Below, one piece after another: positions 6,773 to 20,101 of a DNA stretch of 20,101 nt; the stretch's first letter is position 1, and every line of letters starts with the position of its first letter. Location: positions 1-20,101 of the IMG/VR virus record IMGVR_UViG_3300043436_000199. One strand, written 5' to 3'. A model generated the notes under the pieces. That model worked only from the letters and a program-made list of their open reading frames with translations, did not search any database and was not told the DNA's origin. Both the position numbers and the translations under genes were made by a program. Source of the DNA: a virus.

Positions 6773-7228
6773 TCACACCTCTTTTATAAAAGTTCGTTCC
6801 ATTGGCCTAAACCCGGCTCTAGAGTAAAGCCGCTCCATTTTGGAGGCTCTATCGTCTTCTAGGGCAATCATAAACAAAGCATTTGCGTTCTTTGCTTTGG
6901 CCCATTGTTCAATGTTTTTGAACATTTGTGAACCAGCTCCGCTCCCTCTTTCTGAGGGGTCAAGCCACCACCACAGCTCTTGAACCACCAACGATGAAGG
7001 GTTGAAGTACAAGGGGTAAGCGATTGCTCCACAGATTCCAACAATTTTCTTGTCAACTTCACAAACCCAAACCCCGACTGAATCGTTAGCTAACGATTGA
7101 AGGAAAAATTGTTTATAACCTGGTTTGTCGAAGGCGATAACACCATGCATTGGCGAAGCAGCATGAAACTTTGCTGCGGCTTCTGTGTAGCCATCAGCAT
7201 CACTTTCATTCGCTCGCCTAACGATCAT
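6773..7228 (-). CDS. GNAT-family N-acetyltransferase
   Basis: A 151-residue protein with the GNAT fold signature. The acetyl-CoA-binding motif A is W-W-W-L-D-P-S-x-R-G-S-G-A-G-S (about residues 86-100), with the pyrophosphate loop R94-G-S-G-A-G99. A preceding strand (I-V-G-I-C-G-A-I) and a C-terminal L-Y-x-x-x-G-F-R-P (134-142) complete the usual order. GNAT enzymes move acetyl from acetyl-CoA to an amine; the substrate here is unknown. It is tightly coupled on both sides: ATGA overlap with the gene before, and one base before the ejection gene. It is therefore made with late virion proteins, so a virion protein or a host protein late in infection are both possible targets. The length is normal and nothing is truncated. 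Confidence 0.85.
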   Translation of the reverse strand: MIVRRANESDADGYTEAAAKFHAASPMHGVIAFDKPGYKQFFLQSLANDSVGVWVCEVDKKIVGICGAIAYPLYFNPSSLVVQELWWWLDPSERGSGAGSQMFKNIEQWAKAKNANALFMIALEDDRASKMERLYSRAGFRPMERTFIKEV

Positions 7229-8330: not shown

Positions 8331-9762
8331 TTGTTCCGCTGAGTAACAATTCAGCCCCAACAATAGCGGTTTTGACAGGATCAGTCATAGACAACTCGTA
8401 AACACGATCTCTGATTTTTAAAGTCATTCCAAGGCGTCTAAAGAACACTCTTTTATAGTGCTCTCCGATCTTTCCTATGGGTGCCGTGTGATAGTTTGAC
8501 CAAGTGTGCCCGCCGTCATCCGACCATCGCAACATCACTTCTGGGTCACTTCCTTGGCCTAAATTTAAACCAACCCCAGACTCTAGATCTATCTGAAGTG
8601 AATGCTGGGCCGTACGGCGCAGGTTGTTTTGGCCCGTTGGGAGTGCTCTCCAGCTACGAAGCCATTTTTGAATCTGACCATCATCAGCGTAAGTGTTCAA
8701 GTCAAAGGCGTGAATTTTCCCGTTTTCGTAATCTCCGACAACAATTTTATTGTTGAACGCCATCTGACAATTGCTTCGATGCCTAGTAAATAAGCCGTTA
8801 TTCCAGCCGGCTCTTTCGTGCCATGACCCGGTTGCCACATCGTAAACCCAAGTCGTGTTTGCACTTGGGAAGATCAAAACATAAAAGCTGTGCCCGTCTT
8901 GCTGATAGGTGTAGGCTAGTGCGTCAGACAGATTTCCATATTGTTGAATTTGCCATTCAATGGCATGAGTCGAAATACGCTGTCCCGTGTATCCATTGGC
9001 TCGATAAACAATGCCCTGCCCACGAGCATCAGCACCTAGCCAAAAAACGCCATTATCAATTTTTGCAATCGTATAGGCAGAGATGCACCCAATTTCATTG
9101 AATGCGCCTTGGATTCTTTGAAGTGGAAAGTCTGTCGCGCCTGAGTCATACCAGACTTCAACGCTATTGGTTCCAAAAACCCAAACCTCTCGATGGTCGA
9201 CAATTAAGCCAACAACGCCATCAGGTGATCCTTCGGCGCTAGCAAAATCAAGAGCATCAATAGATGTGCCGTCGAGGAGACTTGTGACCCATATCCTTTG
9301 GCTATTTGGCTCGTTAAACACAAAATAACCGTCCAAATACCCAACAGTTCCCGCACCAGGGAAGTCAGGATCTGTGATTTGTAAGAAAACATTAGTAGTG
9401 TTGTTGTAAATGTAGCTGGGGCCATTACAGGCTATGAACAATTGAGTCCCATTGTCCGCCATGCTGACAGGCCCAGTGCCGCTTACATTTCCAATGAGTG
9501 TCGCGGAATAACTTGTATTGATCTTGTAAAGCTTTGTGCCAGACACTACAAACGCAACAGTCTTGTCAGATGAGAACGCCCACAGCCCACGTATGGGGCC
9601 ATCCCCGATAGTCGCCAGATTGAGCAGTCCAGGGCATCTTTGAAGATAAGCTGGCTCCTTGCCCCCTTCTGGCACAACCTCTGGGAACAAATTGACCATT
9701 CGAGCATCCGCAGCATTGACGCTGCGAGCCACGTAGCTTGAGCCAAGAATTGGCGTTTTCAT
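8323..9762 (-). CDS. Packaged-DNA stabilisation / tail hub protein, P22 gp10-like
   Basis: A 479-residue beta-rich protein of the P22 gp10 family, close to the family's usual length. It begins K-T-P-I-L-G-S-S-Y-x-x-R-S-x-N-A-A-D, then N-L-F-P-E (about residues 25-29) and a C-P-G-L block, all typical of the N-terminal end. Repeated strand units with Gly/Asp turns (60-370) suggest a propeller-like fold, including a W-Y-D-S-G motif. Gp10 binds the gp4-like ring under the portal and holds packaged DNA in place; this is family knowledge. The start is ATG 9762, forming a TGATG junction with the gp4-like stop. A TTG three bases earlier is in frame but unlikely. Confidence 0.85.
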   Translation of the reverse strand: MKTPILGSSYVARSVNAADARMVNLFPEVVPEGGKEPAYLQRCPGLLNLATIGDGPIRGLWAFSSDKTVAFVVSGTKLYKINTSYSATLIGNVSGTGPVSMADNGTQLFIACNGPSYIYNNTTNVFLQITDPDFPGAGTVGYLDGYFVFNEPNSQRIWVTSLLDGTSIDALDFASAEGSPDGVVGLIVDHREVWVFGTNSVEVWYDSGATDFPLQRIQGAFNEIGCISAYTIAKIDNGVFWLGADARGQGIVYRANGYTGQRISTHAIEWQIQQYGNLSDALAYTYQQDGHSFYVLIFPSANTTWVYDVATGSWHERAGWNNGLFTRHRSNCQMAFNNKIVVGDYENGKIHAFDLNTYADDGQIQKWLRSWRALPTGQNNLRRTAQHSLQIDLESGVGLNLGQGSDPEVMLRWSDDGGHTWSNYHTAPIGKIGEHYKRVFFRRLGMTLKIRDRVYELSMTDPVKTAIVGAELLLSGTNA

Positions 9763-10472
9763 CAATAGTTCCCGGCGTACACGTTGAACCGCTGACGAGT
9801 GGCAACCAGAGAATACGGCAAGCTCATAATGTCATCAGGATTGTTGACGCGCTTGAGGTTCCGTTTGGATGCCATAGCGATACGTTGAACCGTTGGGGAT
9901 GGCTCAACCCCAAACTCTGGAGCCATTTCAGCCGCCAAGTTGTATTTCAAGGCTCGAAGGTAACCGGGCGGAAGATAGAGATTGGTTGCAAGGTTGGCCG
10001 GCTGGGAAATTTCCTGAACCGAAACAAAATGCCACTCTAGCGCCCGAGTTGGGCGCGGATAGATGGTCATGGTGATGTCTGGGAAGGTCATGTTCACCCA
10101 CATCACTTGTGGGTAAGTAGACGTGACGGTTTTAACCGCAATCCCGTTGTACTGCTGTTGATTGATCAACTTGACCCCAAACGAAACATTCGTTGTCGGG
10201 TCTCTAAAGTAGGTTGAATCATCAATCAACACAGGCCGATTGCCAACAAAGTCCCCCGTAGGGCCTAACGTGCGGGTGATGGTGTCGGTGGGCCAAGTAA
10301 AAACCTGATCCTGGGTGCTGTAAACCGAAAGACGCTCAATGCTCCACGAATCAATCATTTGATTCAAAGCGGAGAGAGCGTCTTGAGATACTTCAGCAGA
10401 AGGCGTTTCGCCCTCTGCAAGCATTCCGATCAGCCTGAGTGCTGAATTGATGAGGTCACCGGCGGTTGCCAT
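9762..10472 (-). CDS. Tail accessory / head completion protein, P22 gp4-like
   Basis: The 236-residue protein opens with the P22 gp4 family signature: T-A-G-D-L-I-N-S-A-L-R-L-I-G (2-15), then a helix ending N-Q-M-I-D-S-W (37-43) and a strand Q-V-F-T-W-P. In P22, twelve copies attach to the portal after packaging and start closure of the channel; that is family knowledge. This protein is longer than P22 gp4 (166 residues); the extra length is C-terminal. I see no glycosidase motif there. The start ATG 10472 lies 43 bp inside the preceding gene, with AAGGA just upstream, so the two are probably coupled. The gp10-like gene follows by TGATG. Confidence 0.85.
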   Translation of the reverse strand: MATAGDLINSALRLIGMLAEGETPSAEVSQDALSALNQMIDSWSIERLSVYSTQDQVFTWPTDTITRTLGPTGDFVGNRPVLIDDSTYFRDPTTNVSFGVKLINQQQYNGIAVKTVTSTYPQVMWVNMTFPDITMTIYPRPTRALEWHFVSVQEISQPANLATNLYLPPGYLRALKYNLAAEMAPEFGVEPSPTVQRIAMASKRNLKRVNNPDDIMSLPYSLVATRQRFNVYAGNY

Positions 10473-10660
10473 GCTTCGTGTTCCTTCCTGGGAGGTCTAC
10501 CACGGCGTTTGATCTCCAAGGCGTTTGCCGGAGCCGCATCATCTGAGGGTTGCGTTTTTGGATTATATCGCACCCATCCGTTTTGCTCGTCGTATTCGGC
10601 CTCTAGTTCCATTGTGGCAATTTTTGTCCCATGCCGGGGGTGTTTTAGATAGATGTTCAC
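10430..10660 (-). CDS. Small protein with C-terminal AT-hook-like motif, 76 aa
   Basis: The 76-residue protein begins with a K-H-P-x-H-G-T-K block and an acidic E-L-E-A-E-Y-D-E-Q-N-G-W-V segment (about 7-30). It ends in a disordered basic tail carrying K-R-R-G-R-P-P-R-K (51-59), whose R-G-R-P core is that of an AT-hook that reads the minor groove of AT-rich DNA. Start is GTG 10660, overlapping the methyltransferase stop as GTGA, with GGGA upstream. Small proteins with a Gly-Arg-Pro basic tail often precede gp4-like genes in podovirus operons (memory); their job is unknown. It might contact packaged DNA or the portal. The last 43 bp overlap the gp4-like gene. Confidence 0.65.
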   Translation of the reverse strand: MNIYLKHPRHGTKIATMELEAEYDEQNGWVRYNPKTQPSDDAAPANALEIKRRGRPPRKEHEAWQPPVTSSIQHSG

Positions 10661-11151
10661 TTGATCCCAACTCCCATCAAGTTATTGAACATCATGCGTT
10701 TTGTGTGAACTTCGCTAAAGATGCTCAGGCTATCAGCCAAAGTTTTGGATACAAAACCGCAATGATGAGCCATGTAAGGATTGTCCTCAATCATAGACCG
10801 CATTCCATACATGAGATCCAAGCCAGTGATAGGGCCTGCTGGAGATACGTACAGAACTTCCTCTGTAGCTTCCGCGTCTTCAAGATCTGGCACGATGATG
10901 ATTGCCTTGCCGCCAGTCTTTAGCACTCGGTGAAATTCAGCAATGACTTTGTGAACTTCGTGCGGATAGACATGCTCAAGAACATGGCTGCAATACACCA
11001 TGTCAAACTCGCCAATATCGCCCAAGTCTGTGACACTGGCAACAATATCCGGCTCACACCCTGGGTTGGCGTCAAGGCGGACTTCTTGACAGGATGGAAA
11101 CCACTCTGGGAGTGGTTCCCGTCCACATCCGGCGTGTAGCACGCGGATCAA
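10657..11151 (-). CDS. SAM-dependent class I methyltransferase
   Basis: A 164-residue Rossmann-fold methyltransferase. Motif I is V-L-H-A-G-C-G-R-E-P-L-P (residues 4-15), which holds the SAM glycine loop. The acidic residue after strand 2 is in L-D-A-N-P (about 26-30), and the D-M-V-Y-C-S-H-V-L-E-H block (50-60) is the family's motif after strand 4, followed by L-K-T-G-G. The target methyl acceptor cannot be told. Start: TTG 11151 is preferred, because GGAAGGG ends six bases before it and the TTG overlaps the previous stop as TTGA. An in-frame GTG at 11166 is possible but would lie on top of that site. It is coupled to fibre-like protein B and then, by GTGA, to the AT-hook gene. The length is short for the family but all core motifs are present. 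Confidence 0.8.
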   Translation of the reverse strand: MIRVLHAGCGREPLPEWFPSCQEVRLDANPGCEPDIVASVTDLGDIGEFDMVYCSHVLEHVYPHEVHKVIAEFHRVLKTGGKAIIIVPDLEDAEATEEVLYVSPAGPITGLDLMYGMRSMIEDNPYMAHHCGFVSKTLADSLSIFSEVHTKRMMFNNLMGVGIK

Positions 11152-11390
11152 GCCGAACCCTTCCACAGGCCCAGAGCTGAAAGCGTGTTCATGATTTCTT
11201 GAACAGCCGCCAACTGAGTAGCGCCAAACGATGCCGAAGTGGCAAGGTTAGACGTAGCTTGCACGCTGGAAGCGCGTTGAGTAACAGGCGTTTTGCCGTA
11301 GAAGCCAACAGTACCGTCAGACTTGCCGATAACAGCTCCGTCCAGTTGTTGGTCTTCGTAAGCAACGCCAATCGCTTTGGTATTAGGCAT
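11148..11390 (-). CDS. Fibre/decoration-like protein B, 80 aa, paralogue of protein A
   Basis: An 80-residue protein whose residues 28-76 are a near copy of the C-terminal half of the protein at 12081-12389; by eye about 41 of 49 aligned positions are identical. The shared module starts V-G-F-Y-G-K-T-P-V, passes A-T-S-A-S-F-G-A-T-Q-L and ends Q-E-I-x-N-T-L-x-x-L-G-x-W. The G-F-x-G-x-x-P-V motif followed by a short helix is common at the C-terminus of phage head-fibre or decoration proteins (memory). The N-terminal 27 residues differ from protein A and are short. GAGGGA lies nine bases before ATG 11390. It follows the glycosyltransferase by three bases and is coupled to the methyltransferase. 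Its role is inferred. Confidence 0.7.
   Translation of the reverse strand: MPNTKAIGVAYEDQQLDGAVIGKSDGTVGFYGKTPVTQRASSVQATSNLATSASFGATQLAAVQEIMNTLSALGLWKGSA
11149..11164 (-). promoter_or_regulatory. Shine-Dalgarno deciding the methyltransferase start
   Basis: GGAAGGG (11164-11158 on the minus strand) is followed by six bases and TTG (11151-11149). The site lies in the last codons of fibre-like protein B, so translation of the methyltransferase is probably coupled to it. Confidence 0.6.
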
Positions 11391-11393
11391 TTC

Positions 11394-12074
11394 TTATCCC
11401 TCGTAAAGGTCACCACCGGGCTGACGCCTCAGGAAATTGTGGAAATTTCCTTTGTACTCTTGCTCAGTGGTGTGATGTGATATGTCCAGGTCAGGAATCA
11501 ATACGATCTCGCCGCCGCATTCCCGCCAGTTGCGGCAGAACGCATAGTCTTCACCGTACCAAGTTCCTTTGTGAGCGCCATGATTGAACAGATCCACATA
11601 GGGATGATATTTCTCCCCGTAGATCAATTCAGGGTAGGCGGTCATGAACTTATTGACCGCCTCCTTCGTCACCTTCAAAAACCCCGCTGGGGCTGAATGC
11701 GCCAACAGGTTGCCATCGGCTCTGACCAGTGGGGTGCCATCCGTGTTAGATAGCACCGCCCCCATGTATTCCTCTTGGTCCTTCTTAAACCGATAGGTTC
11801 CGCAGACAACATCGCCTTTGGTTTCAATCAGTGTCAAAAGGTCTTGAGGCTTCCATGAAACATCATGGTCAATGAACACAATGGCATCTGCCTTTGCATC
11901 CAAAGCCTTCCTAAGCATGGTTGACCGAGCGTGTGAAATGTACGGACAACCAATTTCAGAAACCATTCCCTCCTCCCATCCCGCCGATTGAATCAACGGA
12001 ATAGAAGCAGCAAGGCTATCAAGCGTCGCCTGATAGGGCTTTTTTAACGTCGGGATGCAGAAGATGACTTTCAT
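11394..12074 (-). CDS. Glycosyltransferase, GT-A fold
   Basis: A 226-residue soluble GT-A-type glycosyltransferase. The N-terminal strand V-I-F-C-I-P-T leads the nucleotide-binding half. A S-H-A-R-S helix (47-51) is followed by V-F-I-D-H-D (66-71), the D-x-D-type metal and sugar-nucleotide site at Asp69/Asp71. The acceptor half has Y-G-E-D-Y-A-F-C (173-180), where Glu/Asp would be the catalytic pair, and a distal I-S-H-H (198-201). No membrane helix or signal is present. The donor and acceptor are unknown. The enzyme lies between two paralogous fibre-like genes just after coat, so a virion protein is a plausible acceptor; DNA bases or host polysaccharide are alternatives. The start ATG 12074 has no clear Shine-Dalgarno. 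Confidence 0.82.
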   Translation of the reverse strand: MKVIFCIPTLKKPYQATLDSLAASIPLIQSAGWEEGMVSEIGCPYISHARSTMLRKALDAKADAIVFIDHDVSWKPQDLLTLIETKGDVVCGTYRFKKDQEEYMGAVLSNTDGTPLVRADGNLLAHSAPAGFLKVTKEAVNKFMTAYPELIYGEKYHPYVDLFNHGAHKGTWYGEDYAFCRNWRECGGEIVLIPDLDISHHTTEQEYKGNFHNFLRRQPGGDLYEG

Positions 12075-12080
12075 GCGCTA

Positions 12081-12389
12081 TTAGGCCGTAGCCCAAACAC
12101 CCAGGCCAATCAGCGTGTTTTGAATTTCTTGCAGAGCAGCCAGTTGGGTTGCGCCGAAAGAAGCCGAGGTGGCCAGGGCTGAGGTGGCGTGAACAGCAGA
12201 GCTGTAAGCACGTTGAACCACGGGGGTCTTGCCATAAAAGCCGACTTTGGACGTTGCAGCATTGCCAACAGTCACGCCGCCAGTGCCAGAACCAAGAGCA
12301 ACAGCTTGACCAGACGCGCCAACATTCAGGGTTTCATTGACGTTGCCATCACCGGCTTGATAGCCATCACCAACTTTAGGAAGTGCCAT
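12081..12389 (-). CDS. Fibre/decoration-like protein A, 102 aa
   Basis: The gene immediately after coat gives a 102-residue Gly/Ala/Thr/Val-rich protein. Residues 1-48 are a repetitive beta-type region (G-D-G-N-V-N-E-T-L-N-V-G, then G-S-G-T-G-G-V-T-V-G-N-A) typical of beta-solenoid fibres. Residues 49-99 are the module shared with protein B, ending in an amphipathic helix that could trimerise. Strong site AAAGGA lies nine bases before ATG 12389. The position after the coat gene matches decoration or head-fibre proteins in other phages. It has many Ser and Thr residues, which could serve as O-glycosylation sites, but that is inference. No enzyme motif is present. Confidence 0.68.
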   Translation of the reverse strand: MALPKVGDGYQAGDGNVNETLNVGASGQAVALGSGTGGVTVGNAATSKVGFYGKTPVVQRAYSSAVHATSALATSASFGATQLAALQEIQNTLIGLGVWATA

Positions 12390-12440: not shown

Positions 12441-13643
12441 TCAGCCCCAGATACGGCAAGCCATTTGCGGACGAATCACGCTGTAACCATACAGCACGTC
12501 AATCCGGCAAGGCATACGGTCGTTGTTGATGTCGTACTGACGAACAACGCGCAGGCTGATGCCGTTATGGACAGCACGAGAAGCCATATCAACGCCTTGG
12601 GGCAGCAGCAAGTCAGCCGTGGCAAACGTGATGGCGTCTTTGTGATACACCAAGTTTTGAGCGTACTGGCTAGCAGCAGAACCCAGCATCGTGATGTCTG
12701 CATCATTGGCCGGGAATCCCGTCACGGTGGCAAGAGCGTGAGCCGAGGTGTACAGGGCGGGATAGAACTTCAGGGTGCCGCTGGAAGAAGCGGTCAGGTC
12801 TTCAGTCACCGTGAATTGCTGCAAAGAGCCAGTGGACTCACGGGTTTGAGGATTGACGGCATACACACCCTCAATGGTGAACACGTCGCCGACCTTCCAG
12901 GTCTTGCCGGAGCCGGTGAAAGTGATGTTCAGTTGAGAAGTGCCTTGGGTCGTGGTCGTGCCATCAACTTCAATGGTCGTGCCCCAATCGCCGGTCGTGT
13001 GCTGCTTGATCGACTGAGACATATTGATCTCGTCAAAACCAAGAATGCCGGTGCCCATCATGCCATTCTTAAATTGCTTCGAAATGGTGTCGGTGGGATT
13101 AAAGAGACCTTTCATACCTTCCACCAAACCGGCGTTAGCGGCAGGGTTGACGGTGGCATAACGGGGGCTCATCACGGCGGCGTTTTCGTTCAGCTTCTGT
13201 TGAGCTTGCAACAGAACCAACGAGGTGCCAGGAGTGGTGCCAGGGGTACCAACGCTGTTGCCAATGCTCTTGTAAGCGTTTGCAACGTCAGCATCAATCG
13301 AGGCTGCAAGTTGGCTGATACGAGGCTTCAGAACGCGGTCTGCGAAGTCGTCCAACTGCATGGTCAGTTCGGCGGAGGTGAAATTCACGCCGATATGCTT
13401 TTGGTTGGAAACAGACAAAGTGGTGAATTGTTCGTTGTCGTCCTGAACTTGCAGGGCGGCACCGTCGGTCACCAAAGCGCGATCAGGCAGTCGGATGCGC
13501 AAGGTAGAGCCGATCTTTGCGCCTTCAACAGCGAAAGAGTCGTCATACTGGCGGTTGACGTTACGGGTGAGCACCAAGTTGTTCTCGAGGATCTCGAGAG
13601 CCTTCCGGGTGATCATGTCAATGGTTAACAGGCTATTTGCCAT
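12441..13643 (-). CDS. Major capsid (coat) protein, P22 gp5-like
   Basis: A 400-residue HK97-fold coat protein of the P22 family (P22 gp5 is 430). The N-terminus has M-I-T-R-K-A-L-E-I-L-E-N and then N-R-Q-Y-D-D-S-F, the typical helix and loop. The L-R-I-R-L-P and F-T-S-A-E-L-T blocks follow. Residues about 215-330 are strand-rich (G-D-V-F-T-I-E-G-V, F-T-V-T-E-D) and correspond to the insertion domain that stabilises P22 capsomers. The C-terminus ends R-I-D-V-L-Y-G-Y-S-V-I-R-P. AAGGA lies nine bases before ATG 13643. From codon 6 to near the end it uses no TTA, CTA or TCA codon, in line with very high expression. It follows scaffold by 19 bp. Confidence 0.93.
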   Translation of the reverse strand: MANSLLTIDMITRKALEILENNLVLTRNVNRQYDDSFAVEGAKIGSTLRIRLPDRALVTDGAALQVQDDNEQFTTLSVSNQKHIGVNFTSAELTMQLDDFADRVLKPRISQLAASIDADVANAYKSIGNSVGTPGTTPGTSLVLLQAQQKLNENAAVMSPRYATVNPAANAGLVEGMKGLFNPTDTISKQFKNGMMGTGILGFDEINMSQSIKQHTTGDWGTTIEVDGTTTTQGTSQLNITFTGSGKTWKVGDVFTIEGVYAVNPQTRESTGSLQQFTVTEDLTASSSGTLKFYPALYTSAHALATVTGFPANDADITMLGSAASQYAQNLVYHKDAITFATADLLLPQGVDMASRAVHNGISLRVVRQYDINNDRMPCRIDVLYGYSVIRPQMACRIWG

Positions 13644-14546: not shown

Positions 14547-15572
14547 TTATTTAGAAAACGCTTGCACTTCAGAATTGGTTAATTTTTGCGGGTAATACAT
14601 GAAACGAGAAACACATCCATTTAAATAAGAACCATCCCGATGAGAACCAAGTCTTACGGCATTTAAGCCAGATGGCAATAATCCACTATTATCTGTTTGA
14701 ATGTCTCCGCCTTCAAAACTTAATGAAAAATTGTTTTCGGCATACGCAAGGCAAACAGAGTATTGGGATCCAACTAAGAGAGTTGGTGAACCGACTTGCA
14801 AAAGTGCTTGAGCTGCTCCCCCGGAGTTTACATCTGCTCGAACTCCTTTGTTTAGCCCTGATGCGCTTCCCTGCCGAACTGTTAGTGAATTTACATATTG
14901 TCCTGTTGATGTATTATCAAACCAAAACACGCGAGAAGCGCCATAAACAATTTGATTTACAATCCATTCAGCTACAACAGTTCCGGCATTAGAATTAAAC
15001 CAATCGCTAAAACTTGCACCTGTTATATTTGCAACATCCGCGCTTCTTAAAACACTAGATGCGCCTGTGGGGATAAAGCTTGTTACAAAATCCCCAGCTT
15101 CTAGTTGTGCATAGCTAACATTACCGCTTACTGTAAAAGTGCTGCTTCCTGCTGTAGGCGTGAATAAATATTCTTTTCGATTAGGAAAATTTCCACTTCC
15201 TGTGACTGTTGCGGAATGACCGCCAGAAATTTGAACTGATCCTGTCCCATAAAAAGATAAAACATATGGAATATCGGAAAGGGTAACGCTTTGTGTTGTT
15301 AAATTTGACCCATCAACCAAACTGTTAATAAACAGGTTTGTTCTAGATTCTTCTATTAACAAACCTTTGCATTTTAAGGTAATTGGATCAAAATCAAACC
15401 TGGGCAAATTTTCATTAACAACTTGAATAACTCCACTTGAGTTAATTGTTGTTGCTGTGTTGCCCGATCTTGATATTGCAACCCTAGCATCAAGAGAAGC
15501 TGTTGTAAAGTCTAAAGCAAGTTTTGGAAGCGATCTTTCAGCCGCAGTTATGGGATAAGATGCATAGATCAT
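14547..15572 (-). CDS. Lectin-like (LamG-type) tail fibre / receptor-binding protein
   Basis: A 341-residue beta-rich protein with few charged residues. Residues 20-35 (L-x-L-D-F-T) and the G-L-L-I-E-E-S-R-T-N-L motif (70-80) are hallmarks of a phage module found next to carbohydrate-binding domains. Residues 155-185 include Y-x-Q-L-E-A-G-x-F-x-T-S-F-I-P-T, which often ends such a module. The C-terminal 150 residues look like a concanavalin/LamG-type jelly roll, ending V-S-R-F-M-Y-Y-P-Q-K-L-T-N-S-E. The protein probably binds host glycans beside the tailspike. It starts at ATG 15572, 12 bases after the tailspike stop, with a weak GGGA. The base composition is AT-rich like the tailspike. No chaperone is visible nearby. 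Confidence 0.7.
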   Translation of the reverse strand: MIYASYPITAAERSLPKLALDFTTASLDARVAISRSGNTATTINSSGVIQVVNENLPRFDFDPITLKCKGLLIEESRTNLFINSLVDGSNLTTQSVTLSDIPYVLSFYGTGSVQISGGHSATVTGSGNFPNRKEYLFTPTAGSSTFTVSGNVSYAQLEAGDFVTSFIPTGASSVLRSADVANITGASFSDWFNSNAGTVVAEWIVNQIVYGASRVFWFDNTSTGQYVNSLTVRQGSASGLNKGVRADVNSGGAAQALLQVGSPTLLVGSQYSVCLAYAENNFSLSFEGGDIQTDNSGLLPSGLNAVRLGSHRDGSYLNGCVSRFMYYPQKLTNSEVQAFSK

Positions 15573-15584
15573 TATTAAATCCCA

Positions 15585-17216
15585 TCAAGTATTATTTACC
15601 GTATACGTCGCATTGAGCCTGAAATTGTCGCTAGCTGCCCAAGTAATTGGAACAGTGGCATCCCACTGAGATGATGCAGCATCACTCTTTATTCTGATCC
15701 CGTTGCCAAATGCAGGGCCCCCTCCAATTACTGACCCGTATATGTACCCTGTTCCAGAATCTTCACCTTGGACAAAACCGCCAAAAAAGTTTTTTTGCGG
15801 AGATTTTAAAGTAAAGTACCAAGTGCCAGTTCCATAGGTTGTTGTAGAGCCCATTGTCACATCAATAACTGTATTTATCTGTGTGCCCATGCGGGTATAA
15901 AATCCAGAAATTGAACCGTTACCAATGACTGGATCGGTCGTAATTGCTCTCCATACCGGAGTGTAGGCAATTGGCGGGAAAAACACGCTATTCCCTATGT
16001 CGTCAACATTCCCAGTGAGATTGTCTACAATCGTAACCCCAGCATTGCCAAGGTTGATAATATCAATGTGCGATTCGCGCATTTTATTAACAGTGATTGT
16101 TTTTCCTGCCGCCATTGCCACATTAGGGCCAAATCCAATCCCAGATATAGTAGTGACTCCATCACCGATAGTGACGTTTCCAGATATTGAGCAATTCGTG
16201 ACTACATTAAAACTTGATTTCGCAGTGTAATCACCAACAATCCGCGTATTTGCAACATACGCCTGCCCATCAGTGGCATCTAGCCCGCCAATCTGGCAAT
16301 TTGTTATCCCTACAGTAAAAGCCTTACGCAATAAAACAGCAGATGTTGACGTAGTTATATTGACAATTTCATAATAATTTTTCCCGGTAATACCGTCGCC
16401 AAGAACAATCCCGTAACCCGCCGCATCATTAGATGCCCATGCATCATTACAGTTTGAAATTCTTGCGCCAGCGCCAGTGCATGTGAATGCATTTCCATTT
16501 TGCGTTCTAAAAACGCAATTTTCAACAACTATATTGTCACCACTAAATTCAGCGCAGTTTCCAGTAAATGCAACTATTCCATCAAAATACAAATCTTTAA
16601 GGCTAACGCCACGGCCTGTCGATGAAAACAACACGCCATTTGCATTTTTTTTGATAATTGAATTCTGTCCCAAAAACCTTTGGCTGTCAGTTGACTGAGT
16701 CAACCCACTAGCCAAATAAGTCCCATCCGGGAAGAATAATGATTTTCCACTATTGATTGCAGTCTGAATTGCAACCGTGTCATTTGTTAAGCCATCGCCG
16801 ACGGCTCCAAAATCTTTTACACTTACAATTTCTCTTAGTTTTGCTTGAGCCGTAGTTGACACTGCTCCGGTTCCAGATGGATCAAATTGAACATTTAATG
16901 CATTTGTTGCAATGCCAGTTCCATTGATTCCAGTAATGTTGTCCCACGTAACCAAAGTCACGTTTGAACTAGTCATTAGTACAAATTTATAATTGCTGCC
17001 AGCAGTCAGCCAAATCTCCCCTGTTGATACACGTCCAGAAGAATCCAAGATAATAGGATTTGTATGGGCAACATTTCCGGCAACAGTTGTGTAAGTTGCT
17101 TGTGGCGTAGTTGTGCCAGCCTGATAAGACCAAAGTTTCCCGCCGGACAGGATAGTACCATTGTTATCAAAAAACTGTTGGCCAGCTCCAGCCAATGCGG
17201 ATAAGTTTACCGTCAT
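15585..17216 (-). CDS. Tailspike with pectate-lyase-type beta-helix
   Basis: A 543-residue tailspike. Residues 1-95 form an adaptor domain with G-G-K-L-W-S-Y-x-A-G-T-T-T-P-Q-A-T-Y and N-P-I-I-L-D-S-S-G-R, seen at the N-terminus of many podovirus spikes. The pectate-lyase superfamily entry motif V-K-D-F-G-A-V-G-D-G (130-140) with D-T-x-A-I-Q-x-A-I begins the right-handed beta-helix, which runs through repeated short strands to about 400. A distinct C-terminal beta domain ends N-A-T-Y-T-V-N-N-T. It probably binds and may cleave host surface polysaccharide; catalytic acids cannot be assigned by eye. P22 gp9 is 666 residues, so this spike is shorter. Unlike in P22, the gene lies between portal and scaffold. 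Composition is clearly AT-richer than portal. Confidence 0.85.
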   Translation of the reverse strand: MTVNLSALAGAGQQFFDNNGTILSGGKLWSYQAGTTTPQATYTTVAGNVAHTNPIILDSSGRVSTGEIWLTAGSNYKFVLMTSSNVTLVTWDNITGINGTGIATNALNVQFDPSGTGAVSTTAQAKLREIVSVKDFGAVGDGLTNDTVAIQTAINSGKSLFFPDGTYLASGLTQSTDSQRFLGQNSIIKKNANGVLFSSTGRGVSLKDLYFDGIVAFTGNCAEFSGDNIVVENCVFRTQNGNAFTCTGAGARISNCNDAWASNDAAGYGIVLGDGITGKNYYEIVNITTSTSAVLLRKAFTVGITNCQIGGLDATDGQAYVANTRIVGDYTAKSSFNVVTNCSISGNVTIGDGVTTISGIGFGPNVAMAAGKTITVNKMRESHIDIINLGNAGVTIVDNLTGNVDDIGNSVFFPPIAYTPVWRAITTDPVIGNGSISGFYTRMGTQINTVIDVTMGSTTTYGTGTWYFTLKSPQKNFFGGFVQGEDSGTGYIYGSVIGGGPAFGNGIRIKSDAASSQWDATVPITWAASDNFRLNATYTVNNT

Positions 17217-18104: not shown

Positions 18105-18467
18105 TTATGCCAGAAATTTTAGCTTGTAGAGCGTGGACAGGTAAAGCCCAACAATCTCGTCAATGATGTTTTGCAAAGCAGTGCAATCTTTGTCAACCAC
18201 CTTGTAACGAATTTGCTCAATTTCGTCTACCTGATCCTGCAAGAACTCCACAACATTGCTAGTTTTCTTGGCAGACATCAAGGAAATTGGGCCAATCAGG
18301 CCGTACTTGCCTTGATACGTCTCGGCAAATTTATCAGCCAAATCAACAATTTCATCGTAAAAAGTGCCTAAAGCACTGTGTTTGGCAAAGCTGCGAGTGT
18401 TCAGATGAACGGAATGCGTGACATCCCGCGCTAGGAACAACATTCCGACAAAATCATTGCATGACAT
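18105..18467 (-). CDS. DUF5856-like protein next to portal, 120 aa
   Basis: A 120-residue, all-helical protein. The block F-L-A-R-D-V-x-H-x-x-H-L-x-T-R-S-x-x-x-H-x-A-L-G-x-F-Y (about 11-37) with later D-L-A-D-x-F-A-E-x-Y-Q-G (42-53) matches the pattern I associate with DUF5856. The regularly spaced His and Glu/Asp recall ferritin- or DnaK-like helical bundles, but no activity is known to me. The start is ATG 18467, as AAGGTGA lies six bases before it. The frame is open upstream to 18524, but that part is portal sequence in another frame. It overlaps the portal stop by 14 bp. Close coupling to portal suggests a late-stage or virion role. Confidence 0.7.
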   Translation of the reverse strand: MSCNDFVGMLFLARDVTHSVHLNTRSFAKHSALGTFYDEIVDLADKFAETYQGKYGLIGPISLMSAKKTSNVVEFLQDQVDEIEQIRYKVVDKDCTALQNIIDEIVGLYLSTLYKLKFLA

Positions 18468-20101
18468 TTGGTTCACCTTGCTCTTGTGGCGCAACAGGCA
18501 TTGATTGACGCATCTCCGGCGCACCGGTCACCAAGTCACCAGTATCCACCGCCGCAGCAATCGTGCCCATCACAATGTCTTGGATCTGCTCAGGAGACAT
18601 TGAAGCCTGCACCGCACTAATCCGCTTCGTTTCAGCATCATACGCCCTAACTTGAGCCTCAAACTCCTTGATAGCAATATCTCTGGCTTCCATAGACTGC
18701 TGAACATTACGAAGCATCTGATGCATCTGCTCCATCTCCTGCCCCATTGCCTGCATCTGCTGTTCAGCAGCTTGCAGCTCAGGCGACTTGTCATCATCCT
18801 GAAGGATCTTCGGATCAATCGTCTTCGCAAACCGCTTGGCCATCTCAGCAGCCCCAGGCCAGTCCATGTTCTTGACGAACAAATCACCCGCCACAGCCCA
18901 CAATTGAGGATTGCCCTGCAACAACTGAGACATGGCATCCAGAGCCTCTTGGCGCTTGGTCATGTAGCTCGGGCCAGTCGTCACGCACACATCATATTTG
19001 CCCACGCTCGGGTTATAAATCTTCTCAATTACCACCCCAGCCTGATCCACAATCTTACGCACTGGCTCTTGCTGCGTCGGATCAATTTTGACCATCTTGG
19101 TCTCGCCATCAATCCCAATAATTCGAGCAATTCGCTGGGTGTCGTAAATCTTCGGCGCCAAGTCAACAATCTGGCGAGTTATGTAGCGCACAGCACGGGC
19201 AAGATTGTCAACGAAGTGGAATGTTCCCGTGTCTCCTTGCTTCTCTCGGGCCAAAATGGCACGCCCTGAACGCTCGTTCGACGTCGCGCCCAGGCTTGCG
19301 TCATACTGACCCGTCGTGCTCTTGATGTCGTCCGCAGCGCCCATTTTGGCTTGAATAAGCCCTGTCTGGGCCATTGGAGGCAAGGCACGCTGCGGAAGTG
19401 GCAGAACCGCGCCCTGTCCATCTGTCGCATCCGGGTTGACTTCCAAGTACGGCCAGTTTTGCGTGTTGGCCGTCTTCCACTGCTGTTCATACCCCTCAAA
19501 CTGCCCACCATACCCAATAAACGGGGCTTTTGGCGCGAGGGCCAACATTTCAGCCTCTTGGCTAACCCAGTAGTTATACATCCGCTGAGCATCCTTCGCA
19601 TTGCGAACCAGCCCAGACACATACAACCGACCATCCACCTCAAACTCGTTACCAACCACCCGAACCACCGGGATGTACTTACCCGCCCAATCACGCTCCT
19701 CAAGAATCTCATATCCATTGATCTTGCACCACTTGACCCGCTGCACGTCCACCCGACGAGTGCGAACAGGCTTCATGCCCATCGCCTTCATCTGCTTGTC
19801 TTCAGGATCACCCTCAAACACCGACATATTGCCAGGGTACAGATTCAGCGTCTTCGCCTCATGCTCAATGTAGAAATACTCAGCAATCCGAACCGTGTCC
19901 TCGTTAATCCACTGCGACAACGACTGATCCCCAATCCCCAACGTCTGCAACGTCGAAATGGGCTGCGCATCCGGGAACATGCGCTCGTAATCTTCTTTCA
20001 GGATGTCCTCAGTGATAAAACACCACTGCGCATCCGAACCGCAAGGGTCTTGAATCGTCGGATCCATGTACACCGAGAACGAATTACGCACCCGACCAAT
20101 C
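18454..20101 (-). CDS. Portal protein, P22 gp1-like (N-terminus outside window)
   Basis: The frame is open to the right edge and gives 548 residues of a portal protein; P22 gp1 has 725, so roughly the first 100-200 residues are missing. The visible part begins with R-N-S-F-S-V-Y-M-D-P (near the family's V-D-P/S-D-A block), has a central Q-Y-D-A-S-L-G-A-x-S-N-E-R-S-G-x-A-I (about 270-290), and ends in a Gln/Met/Glu-rich helix (about 445-510) that would form the P22-type barrel extending into the capsid. A dodecamer forms the DNA-entry vertex and binds the terminase and then gp4. The GTG at 20091 is not a start. The next gene begins before its stop. Confidence 0.92.
   Translation of the reverse strand, partial: IGRVRNSFSVYMDPTIQDPCGSDAQWCFITEDILKEDYERMFPDAQPISTLQTLGIGDQSLSQWINEDTVRIAEYFYIEHEAKTLNLYPGNMSVFEGDPEDKQMKAMGMKPVRTRRVDVQRVKWCKINGYEILEERDWAGKYIPVVRVVGNEFEVDGRLYVSGLVRNAKDAQRMYNYWVSQEAEMLALAPKAPFIGYGGQFEGYEQQWKTANTQNWPYLEVNPDATDGQGAVLPLPQRALPPMAQTGLIQAKMGAADDIKSTTGQYDASLGATSNERSGRAILAREKQGDTGTFHFVDNLARAVRYITRQIVDLAPKIYDTQRIARIIGIDGETKMVKIDPTQQEPVRKIVDQAGVVIEKIYNPSVGKYDVCVTTGPSYMTKRQEALDAMSQLLQGNPQLWAVAGDLFVKNMDWPGAAEMAKRFAKTIDPKILQDDDKSPELQAAEQQMQAMGQEMEQMHQMLRNVQQSMEARDIAIKEFEAQVRAYDAETKRISAVQASMSPEQIQDIVMGTIAAAVDTGDLVTGAPEMRQSMPVAPQEQGEPNVMQ

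What the first reader, a model, noticed from the sequence alone, without database searches (positions are those of the whole stretch)
11148..12389. Glycosyltransferase sandwiched between two paralogous fibre-like genes
The GT-A enzyme (11394-12074) lies exactly between two genes whose C-terminal 50 residues are nearly the same (about 41 of 49 by eye) but whose N-terminal parts differ, with gaps of 3-6 bp and directly after the coat gene. The arrangement looks like a gene duplication split by, or captured together with, a sugar transferase. An attractive reading is a self-contained capsid-fibre glycosylation cassette, with the Ser/Thr-rich fibre proteins as acceptors. Synteny is seen; the substrate is inferred.
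Basis: partly seen in the sequence, partly recalled or inferred. Interest (0 to 1): 0.68.

Follow-up and report, generated by a model that had tools for sequence, protein, structure and literature searches.

The report
Phage head-fibre genes with matching glycosyltransferase
In a large group of uncultured P22-like phages, small proteins encoded right after the coat gene can carry one interchangeable tail domain, and almost every virus with that tail domain also carries a dedicated sugar-adding enzyme beside it, which suggests that the virus glycosylates the surface of its own particle.

Summary
Two small genes, A (12081-12389) and B (11148-11390), share a C-terminal domain (40/51 identical) and flank an intact GT-A glycosyltransferase directly after a P22-type coat gene.

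The "duplication split by a GT" reading fails. A and B are two old slot genes. Their different N-termini recur in the same place in 115/124 (A) and 82/124 (B) GT-less relatives, attached to other C-terminal domains. A's C-terminal domain is closer to that of distant viruses (89%) than to B's (78%). So the C-terminal domain was swapped in, and the GT goes with it.

The "glycosylation cassette" reading is well supported by synteny:
- Coat-anchored loci: domain plus GT 19, domain without GT 0, divergent GT only 9, neither 111.
- Phylogenetically independent pairs on the coat tree: 8:0.
- Second, domain-anchored scan: 73/73 evaluable loci have the GT.
- Bacterial genomes: 4/4 GTs at 57% identity or more are in the cassette, 0/76 at 29% or less.

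Gene order varies, and the F-GT-F sandwich is a minority form (7/106). GT divergence follows the domain, not the coat.

That the GT glycosylates this domain is inferred (about 0.65). Acceptor residue, sugar and virion location are unproven.

The parts
12441..13643 (-). P22-type major coat protein; the cassette lies directly downstream
   Evidence: PF11651 E 6e-46, PHROG_283 major head protein E 1e-79
12081..12389 (-). gene A: small slot protein (102 aa), putative capsid decoration protein or short head fibre
   Evidence: conserved right after coat in relatives; no Pfam/PHROG family
12318..12389 (-). N-terminal part of A (MALPKVGDGYQAGDGNVNETLNVG), putative capsid anchor
   Evidence: same N-terminus in the slot of 115 of 124 GT-less relatives and never outside the slot
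12084..12251 (-). C-terminal domain of A: GFYGxTPVxQR motif, Ser/Thr-rich stretch, helix, terminal Trp; putative acceptor domain
   Evidence: 40/51 identical to that of B; helix 80-96 in the AF2 model, low confidence; column table
11394..12074 (-). GT-A glycosyltransferase, 226 aa
   Evidence: PHROG_1574; AF2 pLDDT 96.8; A197 Z 17.3; invariant R50, D69, D71, D176, H200 among 75 relatives
11862..11870 (-). DxD motif (D69-H70-D71) of the GT
   Evidence: both Asp invariant in 75 aligned relatives; codons read
11148..11390 (-). gene B: second small slot protein (80 aa)
11325..11390 (-). N-terminal part of B (MPNTKAIGVAYEDQQLDGAVIG), putative capsid anchor
   Evidence: same N-terminus in the slot of 82 of 124 GT-less relatives
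11151..11315 (-). C-terminal domain of B, same family as that of A
10657..11166 (-). SAM-dependent methyltransferase, overlaps the end of B by 19 bp; optional member of the cassette
   Evidence: Methyltransf_11 E 4e-10; among fetched loci found with the GT in all but two, L224 and L335 (L224 ends inside the MT gene)
9762..10472 (-). P22 tail accessory factor/adaptor; marks the downstream end of the variable slot
   Evidence: PF11650 E 2e-4; PHROG_637 head-tail adaptor

Best explanation
Downstream of the coat gene these P22-like phages have a two-gene slot for small structural proteins, each built of a conserved N-terminal part (probably the capsid anchor) and an exchangeable C-terminal domain. 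In the window lineage both proteins carry the same ~55-residue domain (GFYGxTPVxQR, Ser/Thr-rich stretch, amphipathic helix, terminal Trp). The GT-A enzyme encoded between them is the dedicated partner of that domain. It is made late with the structural proteins and, before assembly, transfers a sugar from a nucleotide sugar of the host to the domain, most likely O-linked to the conserved Ser/Thr cluster (S70 and neighbours in A). The adjacent methyltransferase probably methylates the sugar. Shown here: the architecture, the exchange of C-terminal domains, the near-obligate coupling of GT and domain, and an intact GT-A catalytic set. Inferred: the capsid location, that the domain is the acceptor, the acceptor residue, the sugar, the role of the methyltransferase, and any benefit (shielding or adhesion).
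For: (1) Coupling: in 139 coat-dereplicated loci fetched by coat alone, domain+GT 19, domain without GT 0, GT without the domain 9 (all divergent GTs), neither 111; independent pairs on the coat tree 8:0, p about 0.008; with all loci 16.5:0, p about 3e-5 (two apparent exceptions, L065 and L225, are ORF-extension artefacts with a GT present). (2) A second sample fetched by the domain alone: 73 of 73 evaluable loci have GT and coat. (3) In bacterial genomes the 4 GTs at 57% identity or more lie in coat-domain-GT order and the 76 at 29% or less have neither domain nor coat nearby. (4) The coupling survives rearrangement: FG, FMG, FFMG, FGM, FFG, FGF(M), which simple hitch-hiking would not predict. 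(5) GT divergence correlates with domain divergence given coat (partial r 0.228, permutation p 5e-4) but not with coat given domain (0.014). (6) Sequence signature by GT status: Tyr in the GFYG turn 119/122, Arg after Q 121/122, terminal aromatic 121/122 with the close GT, against 6, 1 and 0 of 17 without any GT. (7) GT catalytic residues invariant; nearest folds are STIV A197, collagen hydroxylysine galactosyltransferases, LH3 and, lower, a PBCV-1 capsid GT, mostly protein-glycosylating or viral enzymes.
Against: No biochemical data. The fold does not give the substrate. Whole-protein Ser+Thr content is lower than in GT-less slot proteins, so Ser/Thr richness is not evidence. The most discriminating residues are a Tyr, an Arg and a Trp, not Ser/Thr; Tyr or Arg could be the acceptor, or all could be structural. 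The 60-bit domain cut-off was chosen after seeing the scores. Nine loci have divergent GTs beside a shorter relative of the domain. The domain AF2 model is poor (pLDDT 62).
Confidence: 0.65

Rival explanations
1. The GT glycosylates the major coat protein (as STIV A197 is proposed to do), and the domain is only a neighbour or a docking factor.
For: The cassette is next to the coat gene, and GT-A enzymes near coat genes modify coat in other viruses (PMC4187194; mycobacteriophages via PMC12363180).
Against: Coats at 80-87% identity to the window's exist mostly without any GT. GT and coat divergence are uncorrelated once the domain is accounted for (0.014). The GT presence follows the C-terminal domain of the slot proteins.
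Confidence: 0.12
2. The GT modifies a host surface glycan (superinfection exclusion or serotype conversion), and its place beside the domain is hitch-hiking in a mobile block.
For: Phage GTs often do this (PMC12619734 reviews it); the block does move between coat lineages.
Against: The enzyme is small, soluble by its model and lies inside the late structural operon. It is never separated from the domain despite many rearrangements of order, and domain and GT co-vary in sequence.
Confidence: 0.1
3. The GT modifies phage DNA bases.
For: DNA-modifying GTs are widespread in phages (cited in PMC12619734).
Against: None of the 20 proteins of this window scanned against Pfam and/or PHROGs looks like base-modification machinery (a few small ORFs were not scanned), and the position is structural. 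The record is a fragment, so the other genes were not seen.
Confidence: 0.03
4. One reading: a lineage-specific duplication of one fibre gene, split by or captured with the GT.
For: The C-terminal domains of A and B are 78% identical, and in most two-gene genomes the two C-terminal domains resemble each other more than average (0.75 against 0.53-0.56).
Against: The A and B N-termini exist as separate genes in GT-less relatives (115/124 and 82/124). A's domain has 89% and B's 83% identity to domains of other viruses, against 78% to each other. Several two-gene genomes have the order B-A-MT-GT instead. Gene conversion or joint domain replacement explains the within-genome likeness better.
Confidence: 0.07

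Closest known systems
Mycobacteriophage virion glycosylation (Che8 gp110, Corndog gp38, Myrna; Freeman et al. 2023, cited in PMC12363180 and PMC12619734)
   Same: Phage-encoded GT modifying virion proteins; glycans reported at C-termini of capsid and tail tube subunits (as summarised in PMC12619734)
   Different: There the acceptors are coat and tail tube of siphoviruses or myoviruses of mycobacteria. Here the candidate acceptors are small accessory proteins with an exchangeable C-terminal domain, in P22-like phages; no glycan shown yet
STIV A197 (PDB 2C0N), GT-A enzyme of an archaeal virus
   Same: Closest solved fold (Z 17.3, rmsd 2.4 over 163 residues, 22% identity); DxD; proposed to modify the coat protein (PMC4187194)
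   Different: Distant sequence; no domain partner gene known to me; archaeal virus unrelated to P22-like phages
Head fibre gp8.5 of phi29-like phages and Dec-type decoration proteins
   Same: Small protein genes close to the coat gene, with a proposed trimeric structure on the capsid (from general knowledge)
   Different: No sequence match (Pfam scan negative); oligomeric state and location of A/B not known
Caudoviricetes sp. ctTUS972 (MW202573)
   Same: Annotated complete genome with P22 coat - hypothetical protein (the domain) - methyltransferase - 'A197' GT - tail adaptor
   Different: One domain gene, order F-M-G; the link between the genes is not noted in the record

Membership tests
GT-A fold glycosyltransferase | Rossmann-like GT-A fold | tested here: met
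   AF2 pLDDT 96.8; A197 Z 17.3, many GT-A entries above Z 12
GT-A fold glycosyltransferase | DxD motif and downstream metal/catalytic residues | tested here: met
   D69, D71, D176, H200 and R50 invariant in 75 sequences
GT-A fold glycosyltransferase | sugar transfer activity | not testable with these tools
   needs enzyme assay
Pfam Glycos_transf_2 (GT2) | score above the gathering cut-off | tested here: not met
   17 bits against 23.3
P22-like morphogenesis module | P22 coat, portal, tail accessory factor and stabilisation protein in one operon | tested here: met
   PF11651, PF16510, PF11650, PF11134
Virion protein glycosylation system (mycobacteriophage type) | GT gene linked to gene of a virion protein | tested here: met
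Virion protein glycosylation system (mycobacteriophage type) | glycan on the virion protein | not testable with these tools
   needs mass spectrometry
Virion protein glycosylation system (mycobacteriophage type) | sequence relation to the Che8/Corndog/Myrna GTs | not tested
   those proteins were not compared here; no mycobacteriophage was among the 48 tblastn matches in the phage records
phi29 head fibre (gp8.5) | sequence match to the Pfam or PHROG family | tested here: not met
   no family matched by any of 76 domain proteins
Head fibre/decoration protein in general | present on the virion capsid | not testable with these tools
   needs cryo-EM or virion proteomics

The most novel reading that the evidence does not exclude
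P22-like phages carry a plug-in virion glycosylation system: a ~55-residue acceptor domain is exchanged among different capsid anchors together with its own GT (and often a methyltransferase), so that any slot protein that receives the domain becomes glycosylated; the domain-enzyme pair would be a new protein family with a dedicated soluble protein glycosyltransferase.
Probability: 0.5. Interest if true: 0.72.

Novelty: new variant of a known kind. Interest (0 to 1): 0.6.

Why it matters
Virion glycosylation in phages is experimentally known in few systems, and its enzyme-substrate pairs are hard to predict. Here comparative genomics points to one small domain as the likely partner of one GT family in a widespread, mostly uncultured phage group, with a residue signature (Tyr, Arg, Trp) that separates GT-linked from GT-free domains. 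If true, it gives a compact cytosolic enzyme plus acceptor tag that can be tested in E. coli, a rule for predicting glycosylated virions in metagenomes, and a clear case of domain exchange on capsid proteins.

Tried and rejected
Pfam, PHROG and PDB sequence searches with the domain alignment gave no family. AF2 of protein A as a monomer was of low confidence (pLDDT 62), so no fold search was made with it. Ser/Thr richness as evidence was rejected: GT-less slot proteins are richer overall. The tally 'GT before F' and two loci with 'domain but no GT' came from upstream-extended ORFs and were rejected. L037 lacks the domain only because its contig starts at the GT (105 of 106 GT representatives have the domain). 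Scans with two divergent GTs returned too few relatives to use. The type-by-type link of the methyltransferase with the domain subtype was weak and is not claimed. The mycobacteriophage glycosylation paper itself is not held, so it is cited through papers that summarise it. A search for an earlier description of this cassette found none in the held library, which is incomplete.

Full report
1. Observation. The GT is intact: it belongs to PHROG_1574, its model is confident, its nearest solved structure is STIV A197 (Z 17.3), and DxD, Asp176, His200 and Arg50 are invariant in 75 relatives. The neighbourhood is a P22-like late operon: portal (18454-20091), scaffold, coat, A, GT, B, methyltransferase, tail accessory factor, gp10-like stabilisation protein. 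The record is a 20.1 kb fragment of an uncultured virus.

2. What A and B are. Loci fetched with the window's coat protein (80-87% identical coats) almost all lack the shared domain and the GT. Their slot between coat and tail accessory factor instead holds two genes whose N-termini match A (MALPxGxGGYQxGDGN...) and B (MPNTKAIGVAY.D...) but whose C-terminal parts are other domains. Profiles made only from the window clade find the A N-terminus inside the slot of 115 of 124 GT-less relatives and nowhere else in those loci, and the B N-terminus in 82 of 124 (7 hits outside). In more distant coat lineages other N-termini (MATYERLDYGSPDG..., MxRSLGVADS...) carry the same exchangeable C-termini. 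So A and B are two old slot genes with conserved N-termini, probably capsid anchors, and exchangeable C-terminal domains. The window's two copies of the domain are each nearer to domains of other viruses (A 89% to L185, B 83% to L220) than to one another (78%), which speaks against a recent duplication.

3. Domain and GT go together. I tested this three ways. (a) Loci fetched by coat alone (three coat queries, two of them from cassette-bearing phages), dereplicated at 97% coat identity: 19 with domain and GT, none with domain and no GT, 9 with a divergent GT and a shorter related domain, 111 with neither. On the coat tree the two traits changed about 30 times, and phylogenetically independent pairs went the same way 8:0 (p about 0.008) in the coat-anchored set and 16.5:0 (p about 3e-5) with all loci. 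(b) Loci fetched by the domain alone, with a domain subtype remote from the window's: 73 of 73 evaluable loci had GT and P22-type coat, and 3 ended at the contig edge. (c) Bacterial genomes searched with the GT profile: the four hits at 57-65% identity are all coat-domain-(MT)-GT, and the next 76 hits at 31% identity or less (nearly all below 30%) have neither domain nor coat nearby. Among 106 GT representatives, 105 have the domain (the other is cut by the contig end), in the orders FG 55, FMG 12, FFMG 10, FGM 7, FGFM 5, FFG 5 and others.

4. Which partner. GT divergence correlates with domain divergence when coat divergence is held constant (partial r 0.228, permutation p 5e-4, n = 78), but not with coat when the domain is held constant (0.014). 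The effect is modest and the permutation ignores tree structure. Domains beside the close GT family have Tyr in the GFYG turn (119/122), Arg after the Gln (121/122) and an aromatic residue at the C-terminus (121/122). Related domains in loci without a GT have these in 6, 1 and 0 of 17. Column conservation shows two near-invariant hydroxyl positions besides the Tyr: S70 (S/T 97%) and T92 (98%), with T69 85% and S75 80%. I take the Ser/Thr cluster as the most likely acceptor, with Tyr52 as the main alternative. Ser/Thr content itself is no argument, since GT-less slot proteins have more.

5. Mechanism and confidence. Best reading: a dedicated soluble protein glycosyltransferase for an exchangeable C-terminal domain of coat-adjacent structural proteins; the methyltransferase, which is nearly always found only with the GT, probably modifies the sugar. 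Shown: architecture, coupling, catalytic residues. Inferred: reaction, residue, sugar, virion location, benefit.

6. Novelty. Phage virion glycosylation is known from mycobacteriophages (via PMC12363180, PMC12619734) and A197 is proposed to act on the STIV coat (PMC4187194). I found no description of this domain or cassette in the held literature, although one genome record annotates the GT as A197-like. I file it as a new variant of a known kind.

7. Limits. Scans return the best 80 hits, the domain threshold was set after seeing a bimodal score distribution, many loci are fragments, and the domain has no reliable structural model.

Noticed in passing
window 15585-17216 and 14547-15572: A pectate-lyase-like tail spike (PF12708) and a second tail protein (PHROG_5939) lie between portal and scaffold, not in the usual P22 place after the tail accessory genes.
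   Followed up: no
window 6773-7228: A GNAT acetyltransferase (PF00583) sits inside the late operon; a possible further modifier of virion proteins.
   Followed up: no
window 18105-18524: DUF5856 protein (E 2e-22) next to the portal gene.
   Followed up: no
L100:1300-1728 (also L240, L251, L264, L278 upstream of coat): The B-type N-terminus also occurs on a gene upstream of the coat, so the putative anchor is used by a third protein in some relatives.
   Followed up: no
L298, L301, L097 and PHROG_29706: A shorter GFFGATPVVQ version of the domain occurs without GT, and also matches the C-terminus of a tail spike family; it may be a general C-terminal assembly domain of phage fibres.
   Followed up: partly
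L036, L043, L209, L214, L226 and others: In two-gene genomes the two C-terminal domains are usually of the same subtype (identity 0.75 within against about 0.55 between genomes), suggesting joint replacement or gene conversion; L036 is an exception.
   Followed up: partly
L373 (NZ_LFIO01000935.1): Coat-domain-GT cassette in the genome of the isolate Rhizobium ecuadorense CNPSo 671, a possible cultured carrier.
   Followed up: partly
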